From Diadema setosum (Eukaryota; Echinodermata; Echinoidea; Diadematoida; Diadematidae), in NCBI GenBank assembly GCA_033980235.1, contig CM067072.1:16681047-16745046 (forward strand): a stretch of 64,000 nucleotides of DNA, given 5' to 3'. Of this stretch, positions 36,770 through 61,755 are shown in pieces. The notes under the pieces are model-generated. The model saw only the letters and a program-made list of their open reading frames with translations. It ran no database searches and had not been told where the DNA came from. The position numbers were made by a program, and so were the translations under genes. Each line of letters starts with the position of its first letter. Position 1 is the first letter of the stretch.

Positions 36770-38144
36770 TTGATATATATTCAGGATATGGCAAAGATGT
36801 TATTTTTACAGATTGAAGAAAGCCCAGGGGATGTCACAGAATATCCTTTGGAGAAGGAAGGTCATCTCTTGCTGGAAGTGCTACAAGCGGTACATCCTCG
36901 TGCAAATGGCCTTGTCTACATGGCAGAGGATGGAAGGAAAAGAAGGACAGTTGCCATACAGGGAAATATCCGGCCGCCACCTGATGGCTGGGACGACAGG
37001 GTGGTGTACTCGCCCTCCACTCCAGCGGCAGATCAAAATGACGTGAACCAGGAGCTGTCGGACCTGAAGACGAAGATCAGGGAACTGACGATGAGGCCCC
37101 CCAAACTGGTGATGGCGCCCGAGAGGAAAATGCAAGTGTTTGATGGGAAGGCAGGAGATGCAGAGGAGTTTATTTCCGGCATGAAGTCAGCCTTTTCCCA
37201 CTATGGGGTACCGGAAGAGGAAAGGGCTTCTTACTTGCTAGACTACATTCGAGGAGTGCCAAAGATGGAGGAGAGGGCCCTGATCAAAGAAGGGAATCAA
37301 GCGGAGGAAATATTGCAATTTCTGAGAGATTCGATCGTACGCAGGTGTGCAAAATCTGGGTGAGCTGCAGCAGCTTTTTCTGGAGCGAAAGCAGAGGAGA
37401 GGGGAACCACTTCGTGATTTTGTGGTAGATCTAGAACGGAGATTCAACAATTTGTGTGGTCGCGAGGCCAAGCTGTACGCTGACCCCAACGGGATCTTAG
37501 TCGAACAGCTCATTGAAGGATTAGAGGACCCTGTCCTGCGAAGTGCTTGCAGGGATCGGTATGAGCGGGATGGTAACACAAACTTCAAGGTCTTACGTGA
37601 GTTTGCCATCCGTAGGTCAGGGCAAGAGGGGTGTCGCACACAAGACCACGAGGGTGCCCGCCAGGCTGCTGTGCGGGCTCGGCAGGGGGAACACCCAGTT
37701 CAACCATCAGACGTCCTCTTGACAATTCAGGAGATGGGTGACAAGATGCGAGATGCGATGCCTGTGGCCCCCTCGGCACCACCAACCGTGCGAACGTGGA
37801 ACCCTCGTGTGAGTCGGCAAAGAGATGCCTGCTTTTCATGTGGGAATTTAGGGCACTTTGCTAGAGACTGTCCCAGTAGAGACTATGGTGGAACACAGTT
37901 TCGGTCTGCTGATCAGAGTTGGCAGCATGGATTTCCACAGTCTGGTGCGCCTCATTTCAACGAGTTGTACAGGAACAGGAATTACTCTCCCAATCCACAT
38001 TGGACCAATGGCAGAGATAGTAGAGGCCAGGATTTTCCCCCGAGAACAGGAATGACATACCTCCAGGGAGGACCAGATGGGTATCGGGGTCATCCTGATT
38101 TTGCAGAGCAGAGGGGAAGTTCACAAAAGGCAAGACATGCCTAG
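36770..38144 (+). pseudogene. gag: LTR element gag (frame-shifted)
   Basis: Two frames join near 37345 with an indel. The first (36770-37363) includes the capsid-type segment from APERKMQVFDGK through AEEFISGMKSAFSHYGVPEE. The second (to 38144) has ERKQRRGEPLRDFVVDLERR, a conserved gag helix, and a CCHC zinc knuckle CFSCGNLGHFARDC at about 37831-37872. The role is particle assembly and RNA packaging. The frame change may be a mutation or sequencing indel; no slippery site was evident. Confidence 0.8.
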
Positions 38145-38874
38145 ACATCAAATCGATTCCAGTAGACACAAAGCACCCAATGTATCCCATACCCCAAATT
38201 CCCAGAAGAATGTGAGTCCATCAGATCGTACAGGTGGTGAAACCACCAGACAAGGGAGTCCCTCCGCAGGGCCACATGGATCAGGTTCCCCAGTCGGGCG
38301 TATGTCAGAGGTGGAGGTGGTCCTCAACGGTACTAGAGGAGATGACGGGTTCGTGTCCAGGGCCATTGGAGAGTGCTATTCTGTTGACGTTGAGTTTGGG
38401 GGTGTCACCGTGCCCTGTCTCCTGGATCCCGGTTCCCAAGTAACTACCATAGGAGAGACGTACTTCAAAGAAAAGTTAGAACCGGTGGGTATTCAGATGA
38501 AGGACGTCCCAGTGTCATCCTTGGTCTCAGCAAGTGGGGATGATATCCCATATGTGAGGTGTTTTGAGGTCGATGTCAAGGTCTTGGGACATCCGATCGC
38601 AGCCAGGATTGTCTTGGTGTTGAAAGATGACATGGCCATGAGGCGTGGTCAGCGTTCCGTGCAAGGGATACCAGGAATGAACGTACTGCAGCAGGTTTGG
38701 GGTCAGTTAGTAGGTGTCGGGCAGGAACACATGAACAAGATACCCAGGCCCACCCCAGATCCAGTATGGCAAGAGGCACTACAAGCTATTCATACCCGAC
38801 AGAGGGAGGATGCAGTGGGCAAGGCATATGGTAGTTGTGGAGTCTCAGAGTCGTGGAGTCAGCGGGTCCTATGA
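38077..38874 (+). pseudogene. pro: LTR element retropepsin-like protease region
   Basis: This frame overlaps the end of gag by 68 bases in the +1 frame. The segment CYSVDVEFGGVTVPCLLDPG, then SQVTTI, is a retropepsin flap and active site, but the catalytic triplet D-T/S-G reads D-P-G (GAT CCC GGT at about 38424-38432). One T-to-C change from Ser would explain it. Later, GQRSVQGIPGMNVL resembles the helix with ILGMN-type motif. The frame ends at 38874 where the match moves to the next frame. Confidence 0.75.
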
Positions 38875-39367
38875 GGCAGTTCTCGAGCCTGAACATTGCG
38901 GTAATGTTTTCCCCGGAGTGTCAGTTTCTCCATGCTTGGTCGATGTACAGAATGGGATTTTCTCTGTAGCCTTGTGCAATGAGAACAACGAAGAAGTGGA
39001 GATCCCGAGGAAGCTGTTACTTGGCACTCTGTACAATGCAGCTCTGGTCAGGAGAGGGACCACTGGTAGTGATGTGGAGGATCAGGATAAGGCAAACAAC
39101 CAAAGAGACTCTACCGCCGTTGATGTAGATTGGACGTCTTTGAGTCAGGAGCAGTGTGGCAAGCTACAGGGCTTTCTTGAAAAGCATCTGCCTTTTCTCA
39201 TGGTGACATGAACTTTGGTTACACTGACCGTATCACTCATCGCATAGAGACTGGTGGTGCACCACCGATCAGGCAGAGACACGGGCCCGGTAAGCAGAAC
39301 CAAGCCCCCGATGCCCTATGCCGTCTGGATCCTCCTGAGGGAGAAGGACAGATGATTGTGAGTAGTA
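38810..39367 (+). pseudogene. LTR element pol: linker, RT start joined to RNase H end
   Basis: After a frame change the frame 38810-39211 carries the usual region before RT (GTLYNAALV). Another shift near 39205 opens FGYTDRITHRIETGGAPPIR, the classic start of Ty3/gypsy RT, which at about 39277-39285 passes directly into GPGKQNQAPDALCRL, the classic end of RNase H. Everything between, that is the whole RT palm with YxDD and most of RNase H, is missing. The join is seamless in frame, which indicates a simple internal deletion. Confidence 0.8.
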
Positions 39368-39427
39368 CGTGATACAATCCGTGCCCAGTTTGACTTAGTT
39401 TCTCAAGGAACAGATATACCAGTTGTT

Positions 39428-40085
39428 TTGAGTACCTGCATTGAGGAGAGACGTCTAAATGGAGAAGCGTGCATGCCTTGGTTCTCAGCTGAGTATCTGC
39501 AGGAGGCTCAAGAGAGGGATGATCTTGTCAATCAAGTGCGCTCCTTTGTGTCAAGGGGTACACCACCCTCGCGTGAGGAGAAGGGCGGTTGTTTACCTGG
39601 AAGTCTGGCTCTCCTGCGAGACTGGAAGAGGCTGATCATCCGAAATGGTATTCTTTTGCGGAGGAGGCGCCGCCCGAACGATGGTACAGAGCACCTGCAG
39701 GTCGTTGCCCCACAGAGCATTCAAGAGGAGGCTATCACCCGGTTTCATGACGAGGCAGGGCATTTCGGGTTCAGACGTACCTATTGGCTGGTTGGAGACA
39801 GGTTCTTCTGGCATGGGATGGAGGAGTCGGTGAAACAATGGTGCGCCAAGTGTAAGCGCTGTGCTGTTAGCAAGCCGCCTGTTTGGAAGGAATGGACACT
39901 TCCCACGTGATCTGAGCTTAAGCGGGGAAGTGAAGCAGGGAGCTCACCGTGGTGCGCAGTCGTATGTTCGACGGCATCAGTTCCGGATGCGAACAGCGAG
40001 AAGGCGGCATGGCTTCAAGGGTCGCTCGAAGATGACAGACTTTTGGGAGGAGTTGATCTCCCTAAGAAGTTTTATTCGTGTGTGA
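39428..40085 (+). pseudogene. LTR element integrase remnant (zinc finger only)
   Basis: The frame 39428-39910 carries an H2C2 zinc-binding domain: FHDEAGHFGFRRTYWLVGDR, then WCAKCKRCAVSK. The DDE catalytic core that should follow is absent; after about 39890 the sequence passes into a basic region (VRRHQFRMRTARRRHGFKGR) that could be the pol C-terminus. This is the second large deletion in the element. Confidence 0.75.
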
Positions 40086-41290: not shown

Positions 41291-41443
41291 AATGTGACTC
41301 CGGTAAATTCGGGCCTGGATGCTCCCAAACGTGTCACTGTCAGGATCCCTCCTCCTGCAGTCGATTCACGGGAGAATGCTCTGATAGTTCCTCATCGGAT
41401 AGCAACCTCTGTGAAAGCGGCTGGTCGGGACAAAACTGCCAGA
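41291..41443 (+). CDS. TEK/TIE1-like: Tie-like receptor, exon E: EGF repeat 3
   Basis: The 153-bp exon (51 codons, phase 1-1) has acceptor CCAATTTTAG and donor GTAAGT. It encodes CDSGKFGPGCSQTCHCQD, then CSRFTGEC, a Ser/Asp spacer (SDSSSSDS), and CESGWSGQNC. Tie2 EGF3 has the same skeleton (GFYGPDC…CSC…CDRF…CSPGWQGLQC). The acidic Ser-rich spacer between cysteines is longer than in vertebrates. Confidence 0.85.
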
Positions 41444-41984
41444 GTAAGTATGCTAACCAGCTTACCATGTTTCAATCTGCAGTGATGAAGGGATAGCAGT
41501 GGATGTTTAGACGATTATGGAATTAAGATGCGTAATTATTGCTTAAACTGTCAAACGGTAGGCCTAAGTCTGAACGTAAAAGAACCACATTGTTGGAGTA
41601 GTTACTTTATGGATAAGGCGTAGCCTGTAAAAACCCTGATTTTGAATCTTGCCAGACATGTAAAATTGTGGATTACCCGATAAGTTTCTTTCCACACAAG
41701 GGAATGAATTACACTTGTCAATGCTAGAGTCATGTTATGCAGGCATGGTCTGTTTTTGCGGCATTGCATCGATGTTGTCGAACTTGTTTCACATTCTAAG
41801 GATACCTTACGTCCCGATGGTTTTCACGAACTTGTTGTTTTACATTTAAACTATTCCAACCTCGAGGCCTCAGGCTTTCCTTTACCGGGATACCAGTAGG
41901 CTTATGATAAATCATGAATAACATGCATAGGGTAATCAATTATGTCACATGACTCATATACAAACAAAAATTATCTACATGGTA

Positions 41985-42519
41985 AGTAGTATGAACATGT
42001 ACCTGTTCGACCCCCAAAATTCTCCCAATCCTCCCGATCGATGGGAGGATTGGTATTACGTAATAGTGTGTCATCGAGAACAATAGATGAGAGTACAATG
42101 CAAATATGTGACAGATTGCGCAAGGGTGTTTTGTACTTAATGATATATCTGAGGAAATATGATTTTTTATGAGCGTTATCTTTGTTTCGCTTCGATTGTT
42201 CTGGTAATTATTATGACTACTGGTTGATCCTTATGGGTTTTTCTACTTCTCTGGTTTGCAGAGATTCCCAAGACGATGTGGTACACATGGTTAATGTAAA
42301 CAACACTTTTTGTACACGTGATTGCTCTTTCAATAGATTGACAGATCCGAATCATCTGCAGAAGGCAGATTCATTCATTGTAAGTCTGTTGTACGAGGAC
42401 AAGGTTGCGTTCTTTGTATGATTATAGGTCTCATAGACTGTGTACGTGTTGATATGATATTGGTGGGGTATTGGTCTTATAGGTAAAAGAAATGTGTCGT
42501 TCATTACTATAGTTACAGG
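41985..42519 (+). repeat. Polinton left TIR
   Basis: It begins AGTAGTATGAACATGTACC and matches the complement of 57466-58001 to about 42519 (TCATTACTATAGTTACAGG). By eye roughly 4% of positions differ over the inner 340 bases. It contains an open frame (42182-42421) preserved in the other TIR. Confidence 0.93.
42182..42421 (+). other. TIR-encoded 79-codon frame, left copy
   Basis: The frame (FRFDCSGNYYDYWLILMGFS start; CRDSQDDVV; TRDCSFNRL) is also open in the right TIR at 57566-57814, with about four or five amino-acid changes between copies. A splice-acceptor-like TGGTTTGCAG lies inside it. No domain recognised. It may be a real subterminal gene or a by-product of young TIRs. Confidence 0.3.
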
Positions 42520-42816
42520 GCACACCTTTCATACAGTGAAACCAGTTTGTTTGTTTTTTTTTCACCATGACTCGCATTTGTACTTTTTTTTATTAGAGTC
42601 ATCGTCATCACAGTTGTCATTTTGCATATATTATGTATATGCCAGTGTGTCAGAGATTGATTTAACCAGTGTAAACGAATACACAAAGATAAGAAATATA
42701 GATATTTGTTGATATTTTGTTTCTTTGGTTAATATGTAAATTACACAATAGACTGAATGTTTGAACAGTTGTTTTAGTAGTATAGCCCGTTATACGCCTT
42801 CTTGTCAGAAATCATG

Positions 42817-43051
42817 AATTAACTTACGAATAAAGTGTAGTCGACCAATATCATACACAACGATAAAGCTTGCATTTAGAAAAGACTCGTGTGAGGTATG
42901 TTTTAGGGCAACGTGTATTGTGTCAACTTTATATAAAAAGAAATTTATAGCAGCTGCAGCAGCATCAGGAGTAGCTATGGCTAGAACAGTAGAAAAGGAG
43001 GAAGATGTATTAAGACAGATAACACACTTCATTGCGTGTAAAAGAACATAA
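42817..43051 (+). other. Open frame just inside the Polinton left TIR
   Basis: A frame without a clear start runs about 77 codons from INLRIKCSRPISYTT through FRKDSCEVCFRATC, an Ala run (FIAAAAASGVAMART), to DVLRQITHFIACKRT and a stop. Its position, reading inward from the TIR and opposite the polymerase, is where Polintons keep other genes, but I cannot match it to integrase, protease, ATPase or capsid proteins. Confidence 0.25.
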
Positions 43052-43246
43052 AAATATAAACCTTGCCCAAGTGGGGGTCTTTCCCCGAATACTTGTTCGT
43101 TACCGAGCTAGTCTACAGACTCATTTGACCCGACGTGAGAACAAAAATTAAAATAAAATTAGTGCAAGCCGCTTTCAAATCAATAGCATCTTATAACCAA
43201 CTTTATTTTGCTTTTAGTGGTATAACTCGCTTAGAGTCAACTTGCG

Positions 43247-44120
43247 TATTAATACTTGAATACGTGATATTATCGTGATGGTTTAAGGCTGTGTTCGGCA
43301 TGTTGTTCAGAAGATTTCGAATCACCATGGTAACATCAAACAGTTGATGGATGCATGACAATCGTTGATTGACACAAGCATGGTATGGTCATGTTATCAC
43401 CATATTTAAGAATGAACGTGTCGGTTTCCCTTACATCAGTGTTTGGTCAGTCGTTTATTTGTTTACATTATCGCCATGGCAACAACAAATACACGCAAAA
43501 AAAATGGTCACTTGCTATTGATAGGACTTACGTGATATTATCGTGGTGGTTCTATATGGTCTTGCTGTTCGTGACAATCGTTGATCGACACAAGCATGGT
43601 TTATTTTCACATTATAACCATTTTTAAAGAATGAACGTGTCGGCTTTGTAATGGTCAGTCGTTTATTTGTTTACAATATCGCCATGGGAACAACAAATAC
43701 ACGCAAAAATGATCACTCATTGTACATGTGTTATTATCGTTTGTTGTTTGTGACGAGCTTGACACAAACTTCATTTCGTTATACGTTATCATCGTGATAA
43801 TTACCCTGAGGAACATGGTTTTCCTTGCGGTCTATGGTCAGTTGTTGTTGTTGTTTGTTTACATTATTGCTATTGACAACAGCAAATACACACAAAAATG
43901 GTCACTTGTGCATTGCATACGTGACATTATTTTGAGGTTTTGGTCGTGTTGTTCATGAAAATCGTTGATCGTCACATGAGTGGTTTAGTCATATTGCCGT
44001 TTTAAGGAACTAAAATTTCCGGGCTTTCATTTTTTTTCCTTATACAATGTAATACGGTTTACGGTCAGTCGTTTATTTTGTTTACGTTATTGCTAATGGC
44101 AACAGCAAATACACACCTGT
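43247..44120. repeat. Tandem repeat inside the Polinton, ~4 units of ~200-240 bp
   Basis: Units share CAACAACAAATACACGCAAA, AATGGTCACTTG, GACAATCGTTGATCGACACA, AGAATGAACGTGTCGG and TGGTCAGTCGTTTATTTGTT. Divergence between units is visible. No coding function. Confidence 0.75.
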
Positions 44121-46948
44121 GAATGGTCAAATGCAAAACGGTTATACGGGGTTGTGGAAAAAAACAACAACTATACAGTGTTTACTGTATTAGCATGCAA
44201 GCTCCAAAGATGACGTGTAGTCATTTTTGAGCTATCGAAGTATGATTTATTTATTTCATCATCGAATCTAAACACGTAGTTCCTCCGTCAAACTATTGAT
44301 CTGTGCTGCAGTCTATTGTTCGATTCTACTCGCTCTCTTTTGTAAATTGTATGACGTCTTTAAACCAGTGATGATGTGCCCAGACAAGTTTTGACAACGT
44401 TGTCGTCTTCCAACAATAAGTTACTGCTTGATATCCCAACAAGATTCATACACGGGGACGGGACATCGTGACGCACACACCATAACCATGTCATATTGAG
44501 GCGCGCAAATCAAACTCATATAGTATACACATATTTTTTTTTCTTACGAGCGACATTGTACCTCTTGAACGTAAAATAAAATGAGATGTTTGTCGGAGAT
44601 ATATCAAAAATGCAATGAAACACGTATGAAAGTTATCTTTGTCATTTCTTCACTGTACTACAGTCAAGCTTACAGTACGAACATGACGAAGGCTGCGGTT
44701 TTCATTTCCTGCACATATACATATTTGTAACAAAGCTTGATATTTTCGATGCAAGACATCCTCAGACTTCATGACTATGTTCAAAATAACTGAGCTACCA
44801 TTTGTATTCTTTTATAAGTCCTTTAGAATAGTTGTTTGATATTGCTCTTCGGAGTCAAATACAATATTCTCAACATTTCTTGAGGTATATAGACTTACAA
44901 CCGCAGTGTCTGTCCAATCTTTTAAAACGTTGTATTCAAGTTTATACACCTGAAAAAAATACTTTGTCGGAGTATTTAACTCACTTCACCATGTTTGCAT
45001 GCCTATTAGTGAGACTGGGATATATATCCAGCTTAGGATGTCGCGTATTCAAGCAAATGCAATGGTTGTTGTTGTAGTCCTTTTCTTCGATCGCCTCATT
45101 GGTGCAATGTTCACGTGATTTGAGTGTCTTTTGTATTGTATGTTACGATTCTTTTCTTTCCCCGACAGCGTCTTCTGAATTTGTCTGATTGTGAAGAAAT
45201 GATAAACACGCGACACTAGTATAGGTGCTTTGTTTATGATAGCACTTATGGCGATCAATGTATTTGACGAGTTGACGACCAAGCTAACAGTTCAATCTGG
45301 CCAAGATGATTGTGTCGCTTTCCAACTTTTCTGTAAGGTTGTAGATGTGAGTTGCTTTTGCTCTGTTTTTTTCCATTGATTTTTCTGATTCAGTTTGCAA
45401 GTTGTGCTTACATGATACATTGAGGCGGACAATAATACACCCGCTATTCAAACACATACACGCAAGCGCACATTGTTGAACACACTCAGTAAATAGCACG
45501 AATATGATTTCAGGCGCTGTATAGCATTTTTTGTTCGCAACGCTGCATGGTCTATTGGTTTCTTAACGTTATAGACACTAGTAACACTAATGATCATTTA
45601 TGATTTATCGAAATGTGGTTTGTCATCAAGGTATCTTCATTCATTTAGAACGTAATGAATTGAACGAGCGCTCGACTATGATAAAAGCGTTGTTTGTTGA
45701 TATTTGAATAGCAATGCCAAGATTTACAAGACAACAGACCTATCATCACGCGTTGGCCATACAGCCGAGCATGACAAAAGCTTGTCTGGAAGTGTTTAGC
45801 CTACTTTACGGAAAGTGTAAACAGGCAGGGATATCTTATTGTGCCCGTGTATATTGATTACCCTTCCCAGTCTTGGAATGGTTGTATTGACCCGCCTATT
45901 GTAAGGTTTCTGTGTGGTGGTATTCAGGTGAAGACAAGTTCGGACATGACAGGCTCACCTGGCAGACAGGCATTTTGTGTCGTGATTTCGAAGCGGTGCT
46001 AGATTTAAGAAGCTGTACCAGCAAGTTAATCCTCATTTCGTCTGAACAAATCACACACACGTACGCACACACACACACACACTTACGACTCGAACACAAA
46101 CATATAAGTTTATGCACAGTGACTACAGTCACAGCCACTCACTACCTAAATAGCAACAACAAAGACGCGTTTCATGGTCAGTTGAATATAGATGCAAGAC
46201 GACAAAGAAAAGTCATGAACACTATCATTATGAAATGTCATTGCGTGATTTTTATTCATTCCAACGATATCACGACATAGATTATAATGTACAGTATCGT
46301 AATAAATAAAATTCTCAGTGAGAAGATATGCACTGAATATTTTCAAAGATACTCAACAGGCATATGTGTTGAATACAGAATTAATTTATGCGGATGAACA
46401 TTTATCTCGGTGGGTTTGTTCTTTTTTCTTTTGAAACGAAGTATGCCACAGGTTTGAAAAATCGTTTACTCACAGAAAGGCGCTGCGGATTGTTTCATGC
46501 AGAAGAATAAAAACAAGAAAAAAAGGACAAAGAAACTCAAAGTTAAATCAAAATGGATATGGTTCAGCATATAACGTAACGATTCGATATATATTGTAAA
46601 CATAGAGGAAGAGAGTATAGTATGATATCAAGGTTTGTTTGTTTTTTTCACACTTTTCCTCCAACATCAAGGCTACATATCTGAAAGACATGAAACAGAG
46701 CTAAAGGGTAAAATCTCCCCCTTAATTATGGATAGGATGCTTCGATACGTATGTACATATCAGTTTTTATCTCCTCTTACGACGCAGAAGCGGAACAATT
46801 TAATTTGTTGACAGAGTTCATCCCGAAACTTGATAATCACAAAGTCACTGATCGCAGAAACCAACATGAAAGTAGATATAGCAAAGAAATACTGAGTGTG
46901 ATTAAAAATTTCGCGGGTTATAAGGATCTTAACACTTCTGTAGAGATA
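44121..46948. other. Polinton interior, no gene recognised
   Basis: AT-rich DNA with chance frames only, where structural genes would be expected. A CA-type run lies at about 46060-46082. Confidence 0.45.
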
Positions 46949-49900
46949 TCAGATATCCAAGAAGGTTGTGGATATGTTATCACTGAGTACTTTTCGTTTC
47001 GGGTAAAAGTACGTAAAGGCATTTCTAGCCTGTGAGTAGGTAGAGACACCATTGTCAACGACGCGAAAGCCGGAATTCATACCACCAGATGCCATTCTAG
47101 ATCGCAGCACCTGCAGATGTCTTTCGTGATGACATTCTGCATGCTTTTTGTTGATGCCTTTGCTGCTGAATTTGTCGGTAGCACCGAAGCAGTGGTAGGT
47201 CTTACCAAGGAGCTACTACGTAGCTCATTGGTCTTACTGCACAGTGCTACGATCCCATCTCCTTCCCATTCAACCTTGAACAAACCCGGGGTTCGCTTGT
47301 CGTATCGGGCGTTTTCGGGGTTATCATTTCGTGGAAACCAGTTACATTTATCCTTTGCATACTCTCTTCTCATCTCTGGTTTGATGACCTCATCGAAAGT
47401 TTCGGCAGATAGAGCGATAAGCCGAGTCTGTATCCATCTCGCATAGTTGGAAATCTGATGGATCAACATACTTTAAAAGAATATCGAAGTAAAACTCGAG
47501 CATGCGTAGTTTTGCCAACTGGTACACAGCGTGTCCAATATGAACAGGGAGGTCCATCTTGATTTTTGCTTTCGCCATATCAACCTCAAAACAATCTTCG
47601 GATATGGGGTTCAAAGCTCGGTAGAGAATGTTATTGATGTGTTTTTGTGCTTTGCTTTCATTACAGATTTTCACGTTCCGATGCCCTACTTTGTTCGTGA
47701 TTGTATTCCCATAGGAAGAATTACCAATAAGCTTCATGGTGTCGGCGATGATACTTTTGGCCGGATCAATATCACCAGCCCTTCAGGCATCGGACACGCT
47801 ATTTCCAAACTCTCTAAAACAAGCTTTCGATTGATATTCAATGAATTGGGTTATCTTAGTCACCACAAGTCCGTGATTAAGATACCACTTGAGCAATGGT
47901 GTGTACAGCAGTATGTAATCACCAAACATACCACCTATCAGACTCCGACGAGAGGTATTCATGATGTCGTGCTCTTCCGGGTAAGACTGCATCGTTTCAC
48001 CGATGTGTTCTCGTCGTATATTAACATTTTTTTAAAATGGGGCACATTTCCGAGAAGTAGGCTTTGAGGTGATCAGGTACGTGAATGTCGCATTGCATGA
48101 AACCAAACAGCTCGCCGCTGCGTATGGCGACTAGAAGAGTCTCCTGACTCAGTCCATGTCGGAACTTAGGGGGTGGGAATCTTTCTGTCAGGAACGCGCT
48201 CAGAGAGCCATCGTGTTTACGTAAATAATTTTGTATTCACACTCCCAGATGGAGATGTATTCATAACCTAGACTTTCAATGTATCGCCGTTTTTCTTCTG
48301 TTTTCTTTAACAAATCTTTCATTGATTTCCCCAGTTTCTGGTTATGTGTTTGACCCTTTGTCAGATGACAGGGATGACCGTGAAAATAACATCCATTAAA
48401 TTCGAAGACTTGTTTAGTTTCGGGGCAGAATCCATCTACTGGCAACTGAAGGGGACCTAGCTTTTTCTCTGTGTGGTTTCCGGCATGGCGTAAGTGAATG
48501 CCTCGGCGATGCGCTTGGTATTGCAACCACTCTTGGGCGATGAGGTATTTGAATTCTGGCTTAACATTGTTCTCCAGTCTTCGTCTAGAATATTGTCCCG
48601 TCGGCATATGTTGCATTATCGCCCAAAGATACGGGGCATTAGCATCGAAACCAACCACTTTTTGGCAGTGCTTACCACCCCACCACGAATCTGGGTTACA
48701 CCACGTTCGTGGTAACGATGGAAGATGGTGGATGGTCCTCCTACTAGATTATCTCTAAAAGTAGAGCAGAGGTCTTTGTCTTTGTCAGAAATAAGACTGA
48801 AATGGGCTTCTGGGCTACACTTCATAAGATATTTCATGGTAAGACCAGGAACCGAAATGCCATCTTTAAATAGGTCGATTGTCAGTCCTCGATAGAAGGC
48901 ACGCATTTTCTCGATCGTTTCGATAAAAGGTGTAACATCTAAATTATTGTACCATGTAAGGTAGTCCTTGAGGCACGACATGCTCTGCTCTTTCCAAACA
49001 GATTATTTTGGAAGGCCTCTATTGGTGGTAGCTGACCTTCTTCTAGTTTGTCGAGGGAATCAACCCAACCGTGAGGAAGGTAACCCTTACTCTCCTCACA
49101 GTCATAGGCTTTGAGAAATGCGGCGTACGAGAAGCCCGGAGCGAGAAAATTGGTAATATCAAGAAATTGGAGATTGCCAGTCTTAAGAGCCATGTGGTTA
49201 TGATTCCTTTTGATGACATAATTGACCGGGTCTTTTTGCAAGAGTGCGGGGTACAGAACTTCTTGATGGCATTGATATCATATCTACCGGAACTGAAGCC
49301 AACCACGGGTAGTTCAGACAAATAGTTTTCAAATTTCTCTTTCAGTTTGATGAGATGGATAGGCTTCTTGGATTTTTTTCTCGTCAGTTTCCCCCAGTCG
49401 ATCTGTTAGCGATGCAATTTTTTCATCCAACTTTTCCATGACATCAGCGTATGTTGTTTCAAGTAATTCTAAAGGACATTGGCTAACTTCCAAGAGATAC
49501 GTGACCATATCATCGATCAGTTTTTGTGGATCTCCGTCAGACACAAGACAAAAAGGCTCATTACACCCGGGGACGTTAGAATTTACACTAACACTCATGG
49601 GGATATGCCTGGAGGTGTATTGGAGTTTACCCGTCGGTATGTCTGGTTTGTTCTCCACTCTTTCAAGATAACATTTCATACCGAATGTCGCGAAGAAAGG
49701 GAAATACCTCCGACACTCCTCCACCACGACCCCTTCATCCGATAATTCTTCCCAAATATTAGGGGCATTATGAAATGTAGCCATGCCTTTCTGGAAAATG
49801 AAGGAGGTTCCCGAAGCCGTACAAGTGGTTTCGCAAAGATTTTCGCGTCTTCCAGAGCTTCAGACATTTACGGCACTGGAAATTTTGACAGTAGCGCTCA

Positions 49901-51210
49901 GTATCAACGATATAACTGAAGTGGTTGCCATAGAGATTAACAAACATGGTATTGTCATATTGTATTTAAATATTGTATTTGAATTCTCGTCACCATCCTC
50001 AAAGAGTGCCAACTCAGGGTGCATACACAGTAATATTAAGCTGAAATAAGTCTTCGATTTTACCCAGTTTACCTAGTCGGACCCCTTGAAAGTCACTGAC
50101 AGCCACACCAGGTTGGTACTTGTGAAACAATGAATTGGTCGGTATTTCTAAAGACTCAGGATCATTTCCTTTACTCGAGGCAATGCACCTGAATAAGCAT
50201 AAGCTGTCGTCGTAGGTATGGCAATTTTTCCTATTTCTACAGAGTGATACAACCGCTCGATTGTCTCTGATATATGTCGGTAGCTGTACACCTTTACCTA
50301 TAGGGTGATCTGTGAGTCGAGCATGGGCGTAAATCCCGGGGGGATAGGGGGGATATATCCCCCCCTGAAATGGAGGAGGGGGGGGGGATGGCCTGTACAA
50401 TCATCCCCCCCCCCCCCCTGAATTTTGAGGGGAAAAAATTGAGGAAGCAGAAATGTGATTGTATCAATTTTGGCATATTGCATGACGTTTGTACGCCGGC
50501 CTTCAGACAGGTAACAGAGCTGAACAGTATTCTATCTTGTAGGAAAATGTATAATTTTCTCAAGCGCTCGCTCGCGAAGAAAGTAACATCGACATAAACT
50601 GTAAGGTATGGCTCAGGCGTTGACAACGTCAAATAGTATAGGTCTACATGTAAACATGCTATGACGCGAGTAACTGGGGACCATCTGCAAAATATTATGT
50701 ACGAAAACATACAAACAAACAATAACAACAACATTATCGCCATAATTGAATCCCCTCCATTTCCTGAATCATTCCTGAGAAACGACAGTGACTGATGACT
50801 CAGCCAGGATACATCTATGGGCATACCAAGGGAAGATCAGGGACGTCGAATCTATGGGGGGCAAAGGGGCATTTGCCCCGCCCCAAAGGAAGTGTTTAGA
50901 CAGACAAATTATTTATCCCCCAAGCAATTCCCGAGATGAGGACAAATCTCGAACTTTCTTAATGGAAAATTGTCCAAATATCGCCAGAACTATATGCACC
51001 AGATCGTTGTATTGCAATCATGAACATGCAAAAGGTCCGCTATACAGGATAAGGGATAAACTTTGTACACTTGATTTGACATAGACGTATATTCCATAAT
51101 TTATCAAAGAGTGTGCAGCAGATCTTTCACTTAACAAAAGCAACCTAATTGTATAGAGGCGTCGATGGGGGAGGGGGGGGGGATGGTTCTCAATTAAAAG
51201 TGGGACAAAC

Positions 51211-52926
51211 AAAAGCGAAAACTATAGCTACAAACGGCAGTTTTTGGAGTGTAAAATTTTTAAATTTTTAAAGCTCGCTCGCTCCGCTCGCTCGCATTTA
51301 ACCGCTATGTCATTTTCCTGATGTTGCTGCCAATGATTGACAGCAGGTGCACCCCGTGCGTCCCCCTTAATTTCCAAAGCGAAAATATAGCTACAAACGA
51401 CAGTTTTTAGGACTGGAAAATGTCAAAATTTTCAAGCTCACTCGCTTCGCTCGCTAGCATTTAATCAGTATGCCATTCTCCTGATGTTGCTGCCAGTAAT
51501 TGCCGGCAGTAGCGCCCGGTGTGCCTCCTTAATTTCCAAAGCGAAAACATACAGCCACAAACGGCAGTCTTTGGACTGTAAAATGTCAAAATGTTCAAGC
51601 TCGCTCGCTCCGCTCGCTCGCATTTAACCGCTATGCCATTCTCCTGATGTTGCTGCCAGTAATTGCCGGCAGTTGCACTCGGTGTGCCCCCTAAATTTCC
51701 AAAGCGAAAAATATAGCTACAAACGGCAGTTTTTAGACTGTAAAATGTCAAAATTTTCAAGCTCGCTCGCTCCGCTCGCTCGCATTTAATCGCTATGCCA
51801 TTCTCCTGATGTTGCTGCCAGTGATTGTGAGCAGGTGCGCCCCCCTCAATTTCCAAAGCGAAAAATATAGCTACAAACGGCAGTTTGGGGACTGTAAAAT
51901 GTCAAATTTTTGAAGCTCGCTCGCTTCGCTCGCTCGCATTTAATTATTATTCCATTCTCCTGATGTTGCTGCCAGTAATTGCAAGCAGTTTTCGCCCAGT
52001 GCGCCCCCTTAATTTCCAAAGTGAAAAATATAGCTACAAACGGCAGTTTTTGGACTGTCAAATGTAAAAATTTTGAAGCTCGCTCGCATTTAATCATTAT
52101 GCCATTCTCCTGATGTTGCTGCCAGTAATGGCCAACAGTTTTTGCCCGGTGCACCCCCTTAATTTCCAAAGTGAAAAATATAGCTACAAACGGCAGTTTT
52201 TGGACTGTCAAATGTCAAAATTTTGAAGCTCGCTCGCTTCGCTCGCTCGCATTTAATCATTATGCCATTCTCCTGATGTTGCTGCCAGTAATTTCCAACA
52301 GTTTTTGCCCGGTGCGCCCCCTTAATTTCCAAAGCGAAAAAATACAGCCACAAACGACAGTTTGGGGGACTGGAAAATGTCAAAATTTTCAAGCTCATTC
52401 GCTTCACTCGCTCGCATTTAATCATTATGCCATTCTCCTGATGTTGCTGCCAGTAATTGCCAGCAGTTTTCGCCCGGTGCGCCCCCCCCCCCCCTTAATT
52501 TCCAAAGCGAAAAAATACTAGTACAGCCACAAAGGACATGTGGGACTGTAAAATATCAAAATTTTCAAGCTCACTCGCTTCGCTCACTCGCATTTAATCG
52601 TTATGCCATTCTGATGTTGCTGCCCGATTGCCCGCAGTTGCTCCCGGTGTGCCCCCATAATTTCCAAAGCGAAAAAATACAGCCATAAACGGCAGTCTTT
52701 GGACTGTAAAATGTCAAAATTTTCAAGCTCGCTCGCATTTAACTGCTATGCCATTCTCCTGATGTTGCTGCCAGTAATTGCCAGCAGTTGCGCCTGATGC
52801 GGCCCCCCTTGATTTCCAAAGCGAAAAAGTATAGCTACAAACGGCAGTTTGGGGACTGTAAAATGTCAAATTTTTGAAGCTCGCTCGCTTCGCTCGCTCG
52901 CATTTAATTATTATTCCATTCTCCTG
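51211..52926. repeat. Tandem array, left block (about 10-11 units of ~160 bp)
   Basis: Each unit contains AATTTCCAAAGCGAAAAATA, TAGCTACAAACGGCAG, ACTGTAAAATGTCAAAATTT, the block CTCGCTCGCTTCGCTCGCTC, and CATTCTCCTGATGTTGCTGC. TTTCCAAAG landmarks occur about every 155-165 bases (51369, 51533, 51690, 51849, 52012, 52164, 52326, 52500, 52661, 52814). Long open frames here on both strands are repeat artefacts. Confidence 0.9.
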
Positions 52927-54061
52927 CAGGCGCGGTGGAGCACCCCAATTATCTCGCAGAAATCCATCGGCAGCCGAGCCTCATTTGCATAAAGTAAACA
53001 ACATGTACTCGCGTAGTTGAGAAAAAGTAAACAACTTCTCAAACTAATAACAATTTAAGGAAACCTATTTTCGGATTAAAATTGAGTTAGTTTGAATTTG
53101 AAAACATGTCCGAATATGCACATATAACATATTAAAGGATTTGACAATGATAAAATGTGAAATTTTAGCGAAAACCTGGCGAGCAAAATTACCAAAAATA
53201 TGCCTCGAAAATCATCCTAAAATTCACGAAGTGTGATTGTGGAACCAAAGCGCCATTCAAACAAAGTACACCGAAATTTATTTATCTGCTTGCATTTTAA
53301 ATGTCATACCGTAATATTCCCGGCCATGGTTGTGTCGGAAAAAAACAGAAGGTGATGTCAAAAATGACACGAACGCAAAGCGTACAGGTCGGTCCCATGT
53401 ATATATAATCGCGTGACTGTAGCGTTGCATGTCACAGCACACAACGCTTTGCTGCATGCAGCGTGCGCGGCAGCAGCTCAGCAGTCACCGCCGTGCGACA
53501 CTCGGCAAAATTGACTGCGTCACATGCAAACCAACAATGAGCACGAAATCCTGAATCTCACGTACCACGCATGCCCAATATTACGGGAAAAGAAATGACG
53601 TCATTTTCAATTGTTTCGCTTGCTACAATTTTCTATTCCAAACCCTGTAGAAACATGTTGATTTCTCAAAAAGTACAGGTGGAACCAAGCGAAAACTTTC
53701 ACCATAATGGATTGAGGCCTGATAAACTTATGTTGTCAATTTCGGACACATTGGAGCCCGGCCATAGTCCAGTCGGAAAAAAACAGAGAGCATGTTTTGC
53801 GAGAGGTGATTTTCAAAACGCTTTAATATCTCAAGTTCTAGTGCAGCAAATTTCATAATTTTTTCATCAAAAGGAAGGTTTTTAAAAACTTAGATAGTGT
53901 GGGAAGTTTGAGTTTACTAGCGGCACGCATAGCGGCACAAGGAGAAGGTAAAGATTTGACTTTTTCATGCACACAGTTTCGGGCAGCCGTGGATGCCCGT
54001 TGGAAATTCAAATAGAACGGGGCGATAATGAGATGCAAATTGGGGTGCTCCACCGCGCCTG
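52927..54061. mobile_element. 1.1 kb TIR element nested in the tandem array (4-bp TSD)
   Basis: The termini are 24-bp perfect inverted repeats beginning CAGGCGCGGTGGAGCACCCC. CCTG is duplicated at 52923-52926 and 54062-54065, within the array motif TTCTCCTGATGTTG, so the empty site is known from every other unit. No transposase is visible; one 95-codon frame (53571-53858) has no domain. The superfamily is unclear: 4-bp TSD and CA-start ends are compatible with several DDE groups. Confidence 0.88.
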
Positions 54062-55235
54062 CCTGATGTTGCTGCCAGTAATTGCAAGCAGTTTTCGCCC
54101 GGTGCGCCCCCCTCAATTTCCAAAGCGAAATTTATAGCTAAAAACGGCAGTTTTTAGACTGTAAAATGTCAAATTTTTGAAGCTCACTCGCTTCGCTCGC
54201 TCGCATTTAATTATTATTCCATTCTCCTGATGTTGCTGCCAGTAATTGCAAGCAGTTTTCGCCCGGTGCGCCCCCTTAATTTCCAAAGTGAAAAATATAG
54301 CTACAGTTTTTGGACTGTCAAATGTAAAAATTTTGAAGCTCGCTCGCTTCGCTCGCTCGCATTTAATCATTATGCCATTCTCCTGATGTTGCTGCCAGTA
54401 ATTGCCAACAGTTTTTGCCCGGTGCACCCCCTTAATTTCCAAAGTGAAAAATATAGCTACAAACGGCAGTTTTTGGACTGTCAAATGTCAAAATTTTGAA
54501 GCTCGCTCGCTTCGCTCGCTCGCATTTAATCATTATGCCATTCTCCTGATGTTGCTGCCAGTAATTTCCAACAGTTTTTACCCGATGCGCCCCCTTAATT
54601 TCCAAAGCGAAAAAATACATCCACAAACGACAGTTTTTGGGACTGGAAAATGTCAAAATTTTCAAGCTCATTCGCTTCACTCGCTCGCATTTAATCATTA
54701 TGCCATTCTCCTGATGTTGCTGCCTAGTACAGCCACAAAGGACATGTGGGACTGTAAAATATCAAAATTTTCAAGCTCACTCGCTTCGCTCACTCGCATT
54801 TAATCGTTATGCCATTCTGATGTTGCTGCCCGATTGCCGGCAGTTGCTCCCGGTGTGCCCCCATAATTTCCAAAGCGAAAAAATACAGCCACAAACGGCA
54901 GTCTTTGGACTGTAAAATGTCAAAATTTTCAAGCTCGCTCGCATTTAACTGCTATGCCATTCTCCTGATGTTGCTGCCAGTAATTGCCAGCAGTTGCGCC
55001 TGATGCGGCCCCCCTTGATTTCCAAAGCGAAAAAGTATAGCTACAAACGGCAGTTTTTAGACTGTAAAATGTTAAAATTTTCATGCTCGCTCGCTCCGCT
55101 CGCTCGTCTCCTGATGTTGCTGCCAGTGATTGACAGCAGTTGCGCCTGGTGTGCCCCCCTTAATTTCCAAAGCGAAGAATATAGCTACAAACTGCAGTTT
55201 TTGGACTGAAAAATGTCAAAATTTTCAACGCAAAG
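54062..55235. repeat. Tandem array, right block (about 7 units of ~160 bp)
   Basis: Same unit as the left block; TTTCCAAAG landmarks at 54117, 54281, 54436, 54600, 54867, 55019 and 55164. Variant units, such as the one with GGACATGTGGGACTGTAAAA and CACTCGCTTCGCTCACTCG, appear in the same order as in the left block, showing a block duplication of about 1 kb. Confidence 0.9.
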
Positions 55236-55941
55236 AGATTTCACCGTAGGAGGGGGAAACCCCCCTACCATACCCTCCCCCTCGCTTGATTCGTTCCCTC
55301 ACATAACCGCTCCTCCTAAGATCAAATCCTGTCTACGCCGATGATAGGCCCCATTATTTAGTAGGCCTTCACAGTGATGTCGCACAGCAAGAGCTGAAAT
55401 ACCTCGATTTTGTCATTCAATAATATATTGTGAATATTTCATTTTCTTATTTTTTTTAAAGAAAAGAAAACAAAATTTTCACCACAAGTGAGCACCAGAT
55501 CGCTGAATTTCAGGTCTGAAAATGCAAAATCTTCCTCGTGTGGGAGAGGGATACCCCCCCCCCCCCCATACACACCCTTCCCCCGTTCGGTCGTTCCGCT
55601 CCCTCTCACAGATATTTCAAAAAAAAATCATACTTTTAAGGTCTGATTTTCCGCCGAAAGTCGTCTGACAAGCAAAAAAAAAAGCAACAAGAACAAAAAG
55701 TCTGACAAGCAAAAAAAAAAGCAACAAGAACAAAAAGTCTTTATGTTATTGCTGCCACTTTTCTCCCACTTTATATTTCATGCAAAAGAGTGTGGGGGGG
55801 GGGAGGGGGACACAAAGCTTCTCCCCCCCCCCCCCCCCCCCCAAAAAAAAAGGCTTCGCCGGTCCGGTTATGGGCTTGTAATCGTGGTGATGGTGACCAT
55901 CCCCCCCCCCCCCCACTCCTCAGTATGGATTTACGCCGTTG
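55236..55941. other. Right flank of the array-bearing transposon
   Basis: Poly-C, poly-G and poly-A runs with a perfect 36-base-period duplication near 55665-55739 (unit containing GTCTGACAAGC and GCAACAAGAAC). No gene. Confidence 0.6.
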
Positions 55942-56800
55942 GAGTCGAGACACATAGAAAGTTACGTTCGTAATATGCTGAACCACCCATTTTGTGTCTG
56001 GGCGAAGAGAACGAGCATATTCCAGGGAGTCTTGCCATACCAAAACATCCTGAAACTCCTGCAAATAAACTCTGTCCCTTACCAGGAATGGTGCTGGAAA
56101 CAATTTGGTATTTCTGTTGCTCATGGCATAATAATAACGGCACTCATTCGTTTCATTGTTTAAAAGAACAAACCCATAAGATGCATAAGATATCTTAAAG
56201 GCTGTGGAATGTTGCTTGAACACCAAGTCCATCTTCTCTTTCAATACATCGTCATTCAGTATTGGCAGATGGAAGTTGTACCAGCAATACACCCTATTCT
56301 GCGTGGATTGACGGTCTTGAGTGTCGTACCAATGGTCTCTGTACATCTGTCCTAGGCACCCGTCCGGATCAACGTGAGGCGGTAGTTCTAGCGGTGCCAC
56401 GACACTCGGACGTTTTCTCTCTGAACAATAAGGAGATAAAAGAAAAATAGGCCTATATAATTTGTATAATTTCACTCAGAAAGAAATAAACGTCTTATAT
56501 TGTGTAACATGGTTTAACAGCCAGTATGAAATCACTTTGTACTATTTTCAACCTTCCCCCGTGATTACAAGATGTGGTTCTTTACACTGAAGGAATAAAA
56601 CAATACATAAAATCATGATTTTTTTCTGTTGGTATACGCAAAACATGTTTTTAAGTTACACCTAAATTCAATAAACTCTAAAGTACACCTGAACATAAAC
56701 AACAGATATTTTTCTTTCTTGTTTCAAACCATCTTTTACATTATAGACAAACAGTGAGTTACGCCATTATGCACTTACGCTTTCTAGCCTGGAACATTTG

Positions 56801-56802
<2 letters not shown>

Positions 56803-56841
<39 letters not shown>
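56803..56841. repeat. (AT)n microsatellite
   Basis: About 19 AT units directly before the tRNA-like sequence; a second (AT)n run of about 30 units lies at 57118-57180. Confidence 0.9.
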
Positions 56842-56844
<3 letters not shown>

Positions 56845-56867
56845 AAAACTTTGAACAAAGAAAATGG

Positions 56868-56938
56868 GTTTTTATCGGGATTCGAACCCGAGACCTCCTG
56901 ATTACTAGACCGGTGCTCTACCACCGAGCTATTGAAAG
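56868..56938 (-). tRNA. tRNA-Thr(AGT)-like sequence, probable pseudogene or SINE head
   Basis: On the minus strand there are an A box TAGCTCGGTGG and a perfect B box GGTTCGAATCC. The D arm (GCTC/GAGC) and T arm (TCGGG/CCCGA with loop TTCGAAT) pair fully. The anticodon loop CTAGTAA gives AGT. The anticodon stem has two mismatches and the acceptor stem pairs poorly, so it is unlikely to be a working tRNA. It sits inside the Polinton between (AT)n repeats. Confidence 0.45.
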
Positions 56939-57013
56939 CCCTAGACAGGTGTTCGTCCCAACCCTTAACTCTCTTTGCTCGTGTGGTCAGAAGCTATAGT
57001 GTGTGTATGTGTG

Positions 57014-57058
<45 letters not shown>
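57014..57058. repeat. (CA)n microsatellite
   Basis: More than 20 CA units inside the Polinton right flank. Confidence 0.9.
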
Positions 57059-57060
<2 letters not shown>

Positions 57061-57130
57061 TTAACCTGACATAGACCCAAAGGATGTAAATCAACTTTGG
57101 AATAAATGCTTCTTTGTTTATATATGTATA

Positions 57131-57181
<51 letters not shown>

Positions 57182-57465
57182 TATGTATATTACAACTAAT
57201 TGATAAATCACCCGACATTGACGTGCAACGCACTGAATTGATTTGTTTTAGTATAACAGCCACGAGAAATCACGGGAATGCATCAATTTAAAAAAAAAAA
57301 TACATGACAAATTTACAGAGCATCCTAATGAAAAGGTCGGTATAGTTCTTGAGTATACAACCTGATGAATGTTATTTTTCAACAAACAGTGGTGTGACCA
57401 TATGGTTTATCGCATTGGTGTCCTTGACATTCATTTTCCCCTATGCATGAATAACTTATTATAGA

Positions 57466-58001
57466 CCTGTAACTATAGTAATGAACGACACATTTCTTTT
57501 ACCTATACATGACCAATACCCCACTAATATCATGTCAACTCGTACACAGTCTACGAGACCTATAATCATATAAAGAACGCAACCTTGTCCTCGTACAACA
57601 GACTTGAAATGAATGAATCTGCCTTCTGCAGATGATTCGGATCTGTCAGTCTATTGAAAGAGCAATCACGTGTACAAAAAGAGTTGTTTACATTAACCAT
57701 GTATACCACATCGTCTTGGGAATCTCTGCAAACAAGAGAAGTAGAAAACCCCATAAGGATCAACCAGTAGTCATAGTAATTACCAGAACAATCGAAGCGA
57801 AACAAAGATAACACTCATAAAAAATCATATTTCCTCACATATCATTCAGTATAAAACACCCATTGCGCAATCTGTCACATATTTACATTGTACCCTTATC
57901 TATCGTTCTCGATGACACACTATTACGTACTACCGATCCTCCCATCGATCGGGAGGGTAAGGAGGATTTTGGGGGTCGAACAGGTACATGTTCCTACTAC
58001 T
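57466..58001 (-). repeat. Polinton right TIR
   Basis: Inverted partner of 41985-42519; ends CCTACTACT, followed by the ATGGTA duplication. Confidence 0.93.
57566..57814 (-). other. TIR-encoded frame, right copy
   Basis: Inverted copy of the 42182-42421 frame, open over the same length with a few conservative changes (for example His to Tyr and Thr to Ser). Confidence 0.3.
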
Positions 58002-58265
58002 ATGGTACAAGGGGTGATAGACGTCCATTATGGGATATATTTGGTTTTTAGAGAGGTGCACATTGTGTGCATGTAACTTGTATGGGCGTTACCTGTCAAT
58101 AGCGTCATAACTCCCCCCCCCCCCTACTGCATTCACGCTACATTAATTTTCTGTATGGAGTGCAGTTGCTTTTCATGCCTGAGTGCTTGATATTACCTGG
58201 TTCGTTCAAGAGATTGAGCACCTGGCGGAACAGCGAATGTCTAATATGTCTTTTTTATGTTTTAT

Positions 58266-58320
<55 letters not shown>
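58266..58320. repeat. (TG)n microsatellite before exon F
   Basis: About 27 TG units ending 12 bases before the exon F acceptor. Such tracts near acceptors can affect exon inclusion. Confidence 0.9.
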
Positions 58321-58323
<3 letters not shown>

Positions 58324-58332
58324 AATTTTCAG

Positions 58333-61129: not shown

Positions 61130-61755
61130 TGTCTGAAACCTTTAATAACCCAATAAGTCCTGGAAAGTTTTAAACAACCTTCTACCTAACAAAAAAACAG
61201 GTTCAAGATAATAGCATCACTGTAGATGGAGAAATTGTCACTGACCGTGTAAAGCTGGCAAACGACTTTAATGCTCTCTTTTGTCGTGTAGGGAGCATGA
61301 ATAACAACTTGCCCCCAATTGATGTGAATAAGATGTGTACACTAGCAGCCGTAGATTCAAGGTTTACTTTTGATGAGATAACAACAAATTTTGTACAGAA
61401 AGAACTGGATAAAATCAATTGTAAGAAGAGTATAGGACTTGATGATATTCACCCAAGACTTCTCAAATGTGGATCTCATTTTCTAGCAAAACCTTTGGCT
61501 CTTTTGTTTAACTGTTCATTACAAACTGGTGACGTACCCAATGATTTTAAACGTGCGAAAATCATTCCTATTCCAAAGTCCAAAAACTCAACTGAGATGT
61601 CGAATTTCAGACCTATATCAATTCTGCCCATCGTTTCAAAAATCCTTGAAAAAGCTGTTCATAAGCAATTATATGATTATTTACACAGGCAACACCTGCT
61701 ATCTGATAGTCCAGTCAAAATAGGGTTTCACCCACCACTAATTGCAACAGTATGA
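61130..61755 (+). pseudogene. Non-LTR retrotransposon reverse transcriptase fragment
   Basis: The frame encodes TVDGEIVTDRVKLANDFNAL, then CKKSIGLDDIHPRLLKCGSH and KIIPIPKSKNSTEMSNFRPI followed by SILPIVSKILEKAVHKQL. These are the fingers and early palm motifs of CR1/L2/Jockey-like RTs (K-S-x-G-x-D-x-I, F-R-P-I-S-x-L). The frame is disturbed before 61297 and stops at 61755, just after the expected G-F-R position (here GFHPP), so the catalytic YxDD part, endonuclease and 3' end are missing. Confidence 0.85.

What the first reader, a model, noticed from the sequence alone, without database searches (positions are those of the whole stretch)
41979..58007. A complete-ended Maverick/Polinton inside an intron of a Tie-like receptor gene
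A perfect 6-bp duplication (ATGGTA), ~535-bp TIRs starting AGTAGTA and a type B polymerase define the element to the base. It makes up about 95% of the 16.9 kb intron between EGF exons E and F. Exact ends of old Polintons are rarely this clear.
Basis: seen in the sequence. Interest (0 to 1): 0.8.

Follow-up and report, generated by a model that had tools for sequence, protein, structure and literature searches.

The report
Decayed polymerase-only Polinton in sea-urchin intron
A large virus-like jumping element sits inside an intron of what is probably a sea-urchin genome; it has perfect Polinton ends but belongs to a family that seems to carry only its own DNA polymerase, so it probably borrowed another element's integrase to insert itself.

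Summary
The ends, (AGT)2//(ACT)2 with a 6-bp duplication, are those published for Mavericks.

It is not a complete Polinton. The only gene recognised is a broken protein-primed polymerase (TP, vOTU-like, Vsr-like nuclease, palm). A nested 5,620-bp hAT-like insert with an 8-bp duplication splits it, and the apparent tRNA-Thr is a common SINE.

The host genome has 19 further TP-domain matches. All five elements with both ends read (this one included) have AGTAGT ends; four have an exact 6-bp duplication, the fifth the same plus two bases. In two relatives with long open polymerase frames (C19, C20) no scanned ORF matched integrase, ATPase or protease. The polymerase is under purifying selection. 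Integrase-chromodomain, ATPase and polymerase genes of a standard Polinton lie together elsewhere in the genome.

Best reading: a decayed member of a polymerase-only Polinton lineage that replicates itself and integrates with borrowed integrase. The borrowing is inferred, not shown.

The parts
41444..58332 (+). host intron between two EGF-like exons (41291-41443 and 58333 to about 58491; outer exon edges read by eye)
   Evidence: GTAAGT donor, TTTTCAG acceptor, phase 1 on both sides
41979..41984 (+). target-site duplication ATGGTA, left copy
58002..58007 (+). target-site duplication ATGGTA, right copy
41985..42519 (+). left TIR, begins AGTAGTA
57466..58001 (-). right TIR, inverted copy, ends TACTACT
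42520..47076 (.). stretch 3' of the polymerase gene with degenerate ~200-220-bp repeats at 43261-44116; no recognised gene
   Evidence: repeats; the 12 ORF pieces of 75 aa or more (of 45 of 48 aa or more listed) scanned with Pfam, one of them in a slightly shorter form, none over a cut-off
47080..50313 (-). polymerase gene, vOTU-to-palm part, broken into stop-free pieces in several frames; palm motifs at 47393-47782, Vsr-like endonuclease in 48203-48748, vOTU-like piece 50017-50313
50314..50321 (.). 8-bp duplication GAGTCGAG flanking the nested insert, left copy
50322..55941 (.). nested 5,620-bp hAT-like insert with 15-bp TIRs (13 of 15 match) and arrays of a ~163-bp unit
55942..55949 (.). 8-bp duplication GAGTCGAG, right copy
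55951..56454 (-). terminal-protein (TP) domain piece of the polymerase gene, open frame
   Evidence: homologs; junction; fold
56866..56939 (-). tRNA-Thr(AGT)-like sequence: a SINE copy, not an element gene

Best explanation
The feature is a decayed copy of a polymerase-only Polinton derivative. SHOWN: it inserted into the intron with Maverick-type ends and a 6-bp duplication. Its one recognisable gene, antisense to the host gene, is for a protein-primed DNA polymerase with a terminal-protein domain, a vOTU-like domain, a Vsr-like nuclease and the palm. The gene is now broken, among other things by a hAT-like insert; a SINE also lies in the element. Relatives elsewhere in the genome have the same ends, long TIRs and one long open polymerase frame with C2H2 fingers before or in it, but no detectable integrase, ATPase or protease. 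INFERRED: the family replicates as linear DNA by its own protein-primed polymerase, the TP domain priming at the AGTAGT ends and the vOTU cutting TP free. Integration is done in trans by the rve-chromodomain integrase of standard Polintons in the same genome, which would explain the Maverick ends and the 6-bp duplication.
For: Ends and TSD: window, C12, C20 and C13 have exact 6-bp TSDs (ATGGTA, GAGCTC, ATCATA, GACGCA); C19 has CACACT with 2 extra bases on the left. The pattern AGTAGTATNNNCATGTACC occurs 23 times (11 forward, 12 reverse) against 1 for the backwards control; it forms seven inward-facing pairs, five enclosing pPolB hits. Gene: palm homologs 572 of 574 candidates, 5 of the 120 listed with PF03175; TP homologs 15 of 34 candidates, 4 of the 15 with C2H2 fingers. 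The TP model has the b-a-b-b-a-b order; the first 16 PDB neighbours are by title Y-family polymerases (weak E, 0.015 to 0.18), and the best viral neighbour is a C2H2 protein of an adintovirus (E 1.5e-3), in line with the TP/LF-PAD account in PMC11071308. Nested insert: 8 of 15 relatives align on both sides of the 55942/50319 junction with adjoining or slightly overlapping protein coordinates. Family content: the C20 and C19 elements are TIRs, fingers and a 1338/1435-aa frame. Outside the unfetched 4.0/3.7-kb core of that frame and the left-TIR insert of C20, all ORFs of 80 aa or more were scanned, 9 of 9 in C20 and 19 of 19 in C19; in the C20 insert 3 of the 7 ORFs of 110 aa or more were. Selection: TP pieces of L027/L028/L029 give dN/dS 0.08-0.14; distant pairs have dN 0.19-0.31 with dS too high to compute. 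Recent movement: C13 and C3 copies are 98.1% identical over 5.85 kb starting exactly at the element start, with different left flanks. Donor of integrase: around C7:7.06-7.08 Mb there are rve E 5.8e-14 with chromodomain 2.1e-7, Pox_A32 E 1.1e-5 and a 1409-aa pPolB frame.
Against: No step of in-trans integration is shown, and the ends of the C7 standard Polinton were not mapped, so I cannot say its termini match, and that its genes form one element rests on their closeness. A short-exon or very divergent integrase or recombinase could escape ORF and Pfam scans. C19 is a distant relative (TP 37%, palm 58% identity), C20 a nearer one (57%, 76%); the nearest ones, C12 and C4, were scanned only in part (7 ORFs of C12) or not at all. 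Capsid absence rests on lack of room, because Pfam did not name a capsid gene even at C7. The whole-genome ATPase search (0 matches) was a false negative, since one search finds that family at C7. The TP model is modest (pLDDT 68.8), no structural match passed E 0.001, and the Vsr match has no stretch significant on its own. In close pairs dN/dS is noisy (0.24 to 1.15, dS up to 0.21).
Confidence: 0.66

Rival explanations
1. It is an ordinary Polinton that lost integrase and capsid genes by decay in this one copy.
For: The window copy is clearly decayed, and integrase- and ATPase-bearing Polinton genes exist in the same genome. Its nearest relatives (C12, C4) were not fully scanned.
Against: Better-preserved relatives with long open polymerase frames (C20, C19) have the same one-gene layout with TIRs close around it.
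Confidence: 0.14
2. The family integrates itself: the Vsr-like nuclease or another part of the polymerase protein does the strand transfer, so no separate integrase is needed.
For: A Vsr/endonuclease-like piece lies inside the polymerase gene (phrog_13076 E 1.6e-5; PADLOC Vsr E 7.7e-4), and the family moved recently without a visible integrase.
Against: AGTAGT ends with a 6-bp duplication are those of integrase-bearing Mavericks (PMC8097293). Polinton polymerases are known to carry homing-endonuclease inserts, read as intein invasions (PMC11071308 passage).
Confidence: 0.08
3. An unrecognised transposase or integrase is encoded in the TIRs or in short exons, and the family is autonomous.
For: TIRs are long (0.5 to 3.7 kb or more) and part of the interior has no assigned function.
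Against: None of the scanned ORF pieces of C19/C20 outside polymerase and fingers matched a recombinase; the only other match over a cut-off was one reverse transcriptase piece (RVT_1 E 1.9e-7, C19; others). The same method found rve at C7.
Confidence: 0.1

Closest known systems
Maverick/Polinton (vertebrate Mavericks, PMC8097293; polinton pPolB, PMC11071308)
   Same: (AGT)2//(ACT)2 ends, 6-bp duplication, TIRs, protein-primed polymerase with TP and vOTU-like domains, nuclease insert in the polymerase
   Different: no integrase, ATPase or protease detected and no room seen for a capsid gene set; one-gene layout with TIRs up to 3 kb or more
Adintoviruses (Polinton-like animal viruses)
   Same: best viral structural match of the TP piece is a C2H2 protein of Drosophila-associated adintovirus 2; C2H2 fingers precede TP in relatives
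   Different: adintoviruses are recalled, not tested here, to carry integrase and capsid genes
Cytoplasmic linear plasmids (polinton-derived, per PMC11071308 passages)
   Same: TP-vOTU-polymerase kept, capsid genes lost
   Different: those are extrachromosomal (recalled); this family is chromosomal with target duplications
Non-autonomous deletion derivatives of DNA transposons (recalled class)
   Same: borrowed recombinase inferred; short same-ended pairs of 2.3 and 7.2 kb exist
   Different: keeps its own conserved replication enzyme

Membership tests
Polinton/Maverick | (AGT)2//(ACT)2 end motif | tested here: met
   AGTAGT...ACTACT in window, C12, C20, C13, C19; motif as stated in PMC8097293 (passage)
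Polinton/Maverick | 6-bp target-site duplication | tested here: met
   exact in 4 of 5 elements with both ends read; the fifth (C19) exact plus 2 extra bases
Polinton/Maverick | terminal inverted repeats | tested here: met
   535/536 bp in the window; ~2.3 kb C20; 2.96 kb C19
Polinton/Maverick | protein-primed PolB with TP-vOTU-palm order | tested here: met
   pieces in that order on the minus strand; TP fold weakly supported; the vOTU assignment is by position and conserved Cys region, no profile match; exonuclease motifs not examined
Polinton/Maverick | rve-type integrase | tested here: not met
   absent from the scanned ORF pieces of window, C19, C20; found by the same method at C7
Polinton/Maverick | packaging ATPase and adenain-like protease | tested here: not met
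   same scans; at C7 ATPase E 1.1e-5 over cut-off, protease E 0.028 under cut-off
Polinton/Maverick | double jelly-roll major capsid protein | tested here: inconclusive
   no ORF over 168 aa outside polymerase and fingers in the fetched parts of C19/C20 apart from repeat-like frames in a C20 insert; Pfam names no capsid even at C7
hAT transposon (nested insert) | 8-bp duplication and short TIRs | tested here: met
   GAGTCGAG twice, TIRs 13 of 15; that this points to hAT is recalled
hAT transposon (nested insert) | hAT transposase | not tested
   the ORFs of the insert were not scanned; treated as non-autonomous

The most novel reading that the evidence does not exclude
Sea urchins host a lineage of satellite Polintons: elements that gave up integrase and capsid, keep only a conserved protein-primed polymerase and Polinton ends, replicate themselves, and spread chromosomally by borrowing the integrase (perhaps also the capsid) of resident Polintons, a chromosomal parallel to virophage-like parasitism.
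Probability: 0.4. Interest if true: 0.7.

Novelty: new variant of a known kind. Interest (0 to 1): 0.5.

Why it matters
Polintons are seen as ancestors of several eukaryotic virus groups (PMC11071308 passages). A family that keeps only the priming polymerase and the ends, yet stays under selection and moved recently beside full Polintons, would separate replication from integration and packaging and make cross-use of Polinton integrase testable. It also warns annotators that a polymerase plus Maverick ends does not make a complete Polinton. I did not see such a family in the listings of my searches; these cover open-access papers only, with few phrasings, and I opened five of the papers in passages.

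Tried and rejected
tRNA-Thr as an element gene: rejected. The same 96 bp gave 41 matches (its own included) at 94-100% identity, several in tandem clusters, with only 40 of 1,135 first-look candidates scored, so it is a SINE-type repeat; the predicted fold of the strand is also not a cloverleaf.

Other copies through the window TIR: six hits including its own two ends. C12:12197570 is a lone TIR of ~426 bp at 89.5%; no second TIR and no match to the collected polymerase relatives was found in 28.5 kb. The C7, C3 and C21 hits are weaker and likewise gave no second end in 28.5 kb.

Long inverted arms at C12:26.61-26.64 Mb first looked like multi-kilobase TIRs with genes of their own; of the seven ORFs scanned there four match reverse transcriptase families and one is zinc fingers. 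The arms contain LINE-type sequence as well as the element TIR.

Whole-genome search for the packaging ATPase gave 0 matches and was nearly read as absence of full Polintons; one search shows this was a false negative. Viral contigs: no relatives by two protein pieces, a TIR string or the palm alignment. PDB sequence search of the palm piece: none. Pfam on the polymerase pieces of the window alone: nothing over a cut-off. TIR dating: outer and inner TIR parts of one element (C20) give K80 0.026 and 0.070, so I give no dates.

Not scanned with Pfam: the window's ORFs in 56475-57465, in the TIRs, in the nested insert and on the plus strand of the polymerase region; the unfetched cores of C19 and C20; four larger ORFs and all smaller ones in the C20 left-TIR insert.
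Full report
What was checked. The ends were read directly. ATGGTA flanks 41985-58001 on both sides, the element begins AGTAGTA at both ends, and the TIR alignment starts exactly at the ends and stops at 42519/57466, with 29 differences in 533 ungapped columns. The intron runs from 41444 to 58332 with standard splice sites and phase 1 on both sides. The receptor's identity was not: neither exon piece gave an EGF call in Pfam, and I did not look for a kinase domain.

What is inside. On the minus strand, reading from the right end: right TIR; a SINE (56866-56939, called tRNA or tRNA-Thr by two programs, but with 40 other scored matches in the genome); a TP-domain piece (to 55951); a nested insert; the vOTU-like, Vsr-like nuclease and palm pieces (50313 to 47080); 4.5 kb without a recognised gene; the left TIR. 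The nested insert is 50322-55941. GAGTCGAG stands on both sides, and the insert has 15-bp TIRs matching at 13 positions. Eight of the 15 relatives collected align in two blocks, one on each side of the insert, with adjoining or slightly overlapping protein coordinates, so the insert interrupts a once continuous gene. It is hAT-like by duplication length and ends; that assignment is recalled and no transposase was sought. The polymerase gene is otherwise broken into stop-free pieces in several frames, and the finger part that precedes TP in relatives was not found in the window at E 0.01.

What the gene is. The palm piece has 572 homologs among 574 candidates, and 5 of the 120 listed carry Pfam DNA_pol_B_2. 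The TP piece has 15 homologs among 34 candidates; the best is annotated in Diadema antillarum (58%), then Lytechinus variegatus (48%), and 4 of the 15 carry C2H2 fingers. A model of the TP piece (pLDDT 68.8) has the strand-helix-strand-strand-helix-strand order. The first 16 of 299 PDB matches are by title Y-family polymerases, at weak E 0.015-0.18, and its top viral match is a C2H2 protein of Drosophila-associated adintovirus 2 (E 1.5e-3, probability 1.00). No structural match passed E 0.001. [quoted passage not shown] The Vsr-like piece scores E 1.6e-5 (PHROG endonuclease) and 7.7e-4 (PADLOC Vsr, no stretch significant on its own).

The family in the genome. The window lies in a held genome of 885.7 Mb. 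The host is probably Diadema setosum: its published assembly is 885.8 Mb (PMC11066563, search listing and start of the abstract only). This is an inference. TP-domain search: 20 matches including the window, eight of them in open frames of over 1,000 aa (1,074 to 1,436). Palm search: 25 matches, some of them pieces of one locus. Five elements including the window have both ends read. Their duplications are ATGGTA, GAGCTC (C12, 32.6 kb with LINE-type sequence), ATCATA (C20, 14.9 kb), GACGCA (C13, 15.0 kb) and CACACT with two extra bases on the left (C19, 15.6 kb, TIRs 98.9% identical). C3 and C6 copies have a left AGTAGTAT end; their right ends were beyond the stretches fetched. The end pattern AGTAGTATNNNCATGTACC matches 23 places against 1 for the backwards control. 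Seven inward-facing pairs result, five holding polymerase hits and two (C9, 2.3 kb; C20:9.96 Mb, 7.2 kb) holding none of those listed. The window's own right end does not match the pattern because of one changed base.

Is integrase really missing? Between the ends of C20 and C19, in fetched sequence, I scanned with Pfam, one by one, every ORF of 80 aa or more listed: 9 of 9 in C20 and 19 of 19 in C19. Not covered: the core of the polymerase frame (4.0 and 3.7 kb, not fetched) and most frames of a 3.1-kb insert in the left TIR of C20, where 3 of 7 ORFs of 110 aa or more were scanned. Over a curated cut-off stood only C2H2 fingers and one reverse transcriptase piece (RVT_1, C19). In the window the 12 ORF pieces of 75 aa or more in 42520-47200 gave nothing over a cut-off. 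The nearest relatives, C12 and C4, were scanned in part or not at all, and C19 is distant (TP 37%, palm 58%; C20: 57%, 76%). The method is not blind. Around C7:7.06-7.08 Mb, beside a 1,409-aa polymerase frame, it shows integrase with chromodomain (5.8e-14, 2.1e-7), packaging ATPase (1.1e-5), a protease match under its cut-off (0.028) and a PC4-domain ORF (1.0e-12). That these form one standard Polinton is inferred from closeness; its ends were not mapped. Four more loci (C11, C13, C18, C21) have the same polymerase score. A caution against my own method: the whole-genome search for the ATPase family returned nothing although that ATPase exists, so whole-genome family negatives are not trusted here. 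Capsid absence is argued from lack of room only.

Selection and activity. TP pieces of related copies show dN/dS of 0.08-0.14 among L027-L029; distant pairs have dN 0.19-0.31 with dS too high to compute. Close pairs are noisy (0.24-1.15). The C13 and C3 copies are 98.1% identical from the exact element start with different left flanks, so they look like separate insertions of recent common origin. C20's outer and inner TIR parts differ 2.8-fold in divergence, so TIR divergence is not used as a clock.

How it most likely works. Shown: ends, duplications, one conserved polymerase gene, no detectable integrase in the scanned parts, integrase-bearing Polinton genes in the same genome. Inferred from the published model: TP primes synthesis at the ends, vOTU frees TP, the palm copies the linear element. 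Inferred without direct support: integration by a resident Polinton integrase. The ends and 6-bp duplication equal those reported for vertebrate Mavericks, (AGT)2//(ACT)2 with 6-bp TSD (PMC8097293, passages), which favours an rve integrase over the nuclease insert as the integrating enzyme.

Place among known kinds. It has the ends and polymerase of Polintons but fails the integrase and ATPase/protease tests, so I do not file it as a full Polinton; it is a Polinton-derived, polymerase-only variant. My paper searches did not list such a family in animals; they cover open-access papers only, and I did not look for the original Polinton and Maverick papers themselves. Other papers seen in passages only: PMC6431247, PMC2836005, PMC12721341.

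Noticed in passing
window 36722-39910 (+): Long + strand frames; the last one (39362-39910) reads by eye like a Gypsy-type retroelement pol piece with an H2C2 zinc-binding region, near the same host exons.
   Followed up: no
window 61174-61755 (+): 193-aa frame that reads by eye like a LINE reverse transcriptase piece.
   Followed up: no
window 51212-55228: Arrays of a ~163-bp unit inside the nested hAT-like insert, with two blocks (52518 and 54724) 99% alike over 300 bp, suggesting an internal duplication.
   Followed up: partly
L033/L031/L032/L034 (C12:26611464-26644039): Both arms of this related element carry LINE-type sequence in mirror positions at ~95% identity, as if an insertion in one TIR had been copied to the other.
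   Followed up: partly
L045-L047 (C7:7063801-7082500, with a gap): Genes of a standard Polinton: integrase-chromodomain, ATPase, a weak protease match, a PC4-domain ORF, beside a 1409-aa polymerase frame; ends not mapped.
   Followed up: partly
G000 C9:8141702-8143967 and C20:9962869-9970018: Inward-facing pairs of the same ends, 2.3 and 7.2 kb apart, without listed polymerase hits: likely short derivatives.
   Followed up: no
L037:1685 (C19:19737685): The element has CACACT on both sides but two extra bases (AT) between the left copy and AGTAGT.
   Followed up: no
The whole-genome search for Pfam PF04665 missed an ORF that matches the family when scanned alone; a sensitivity limit of that search.
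   Followed up: yes
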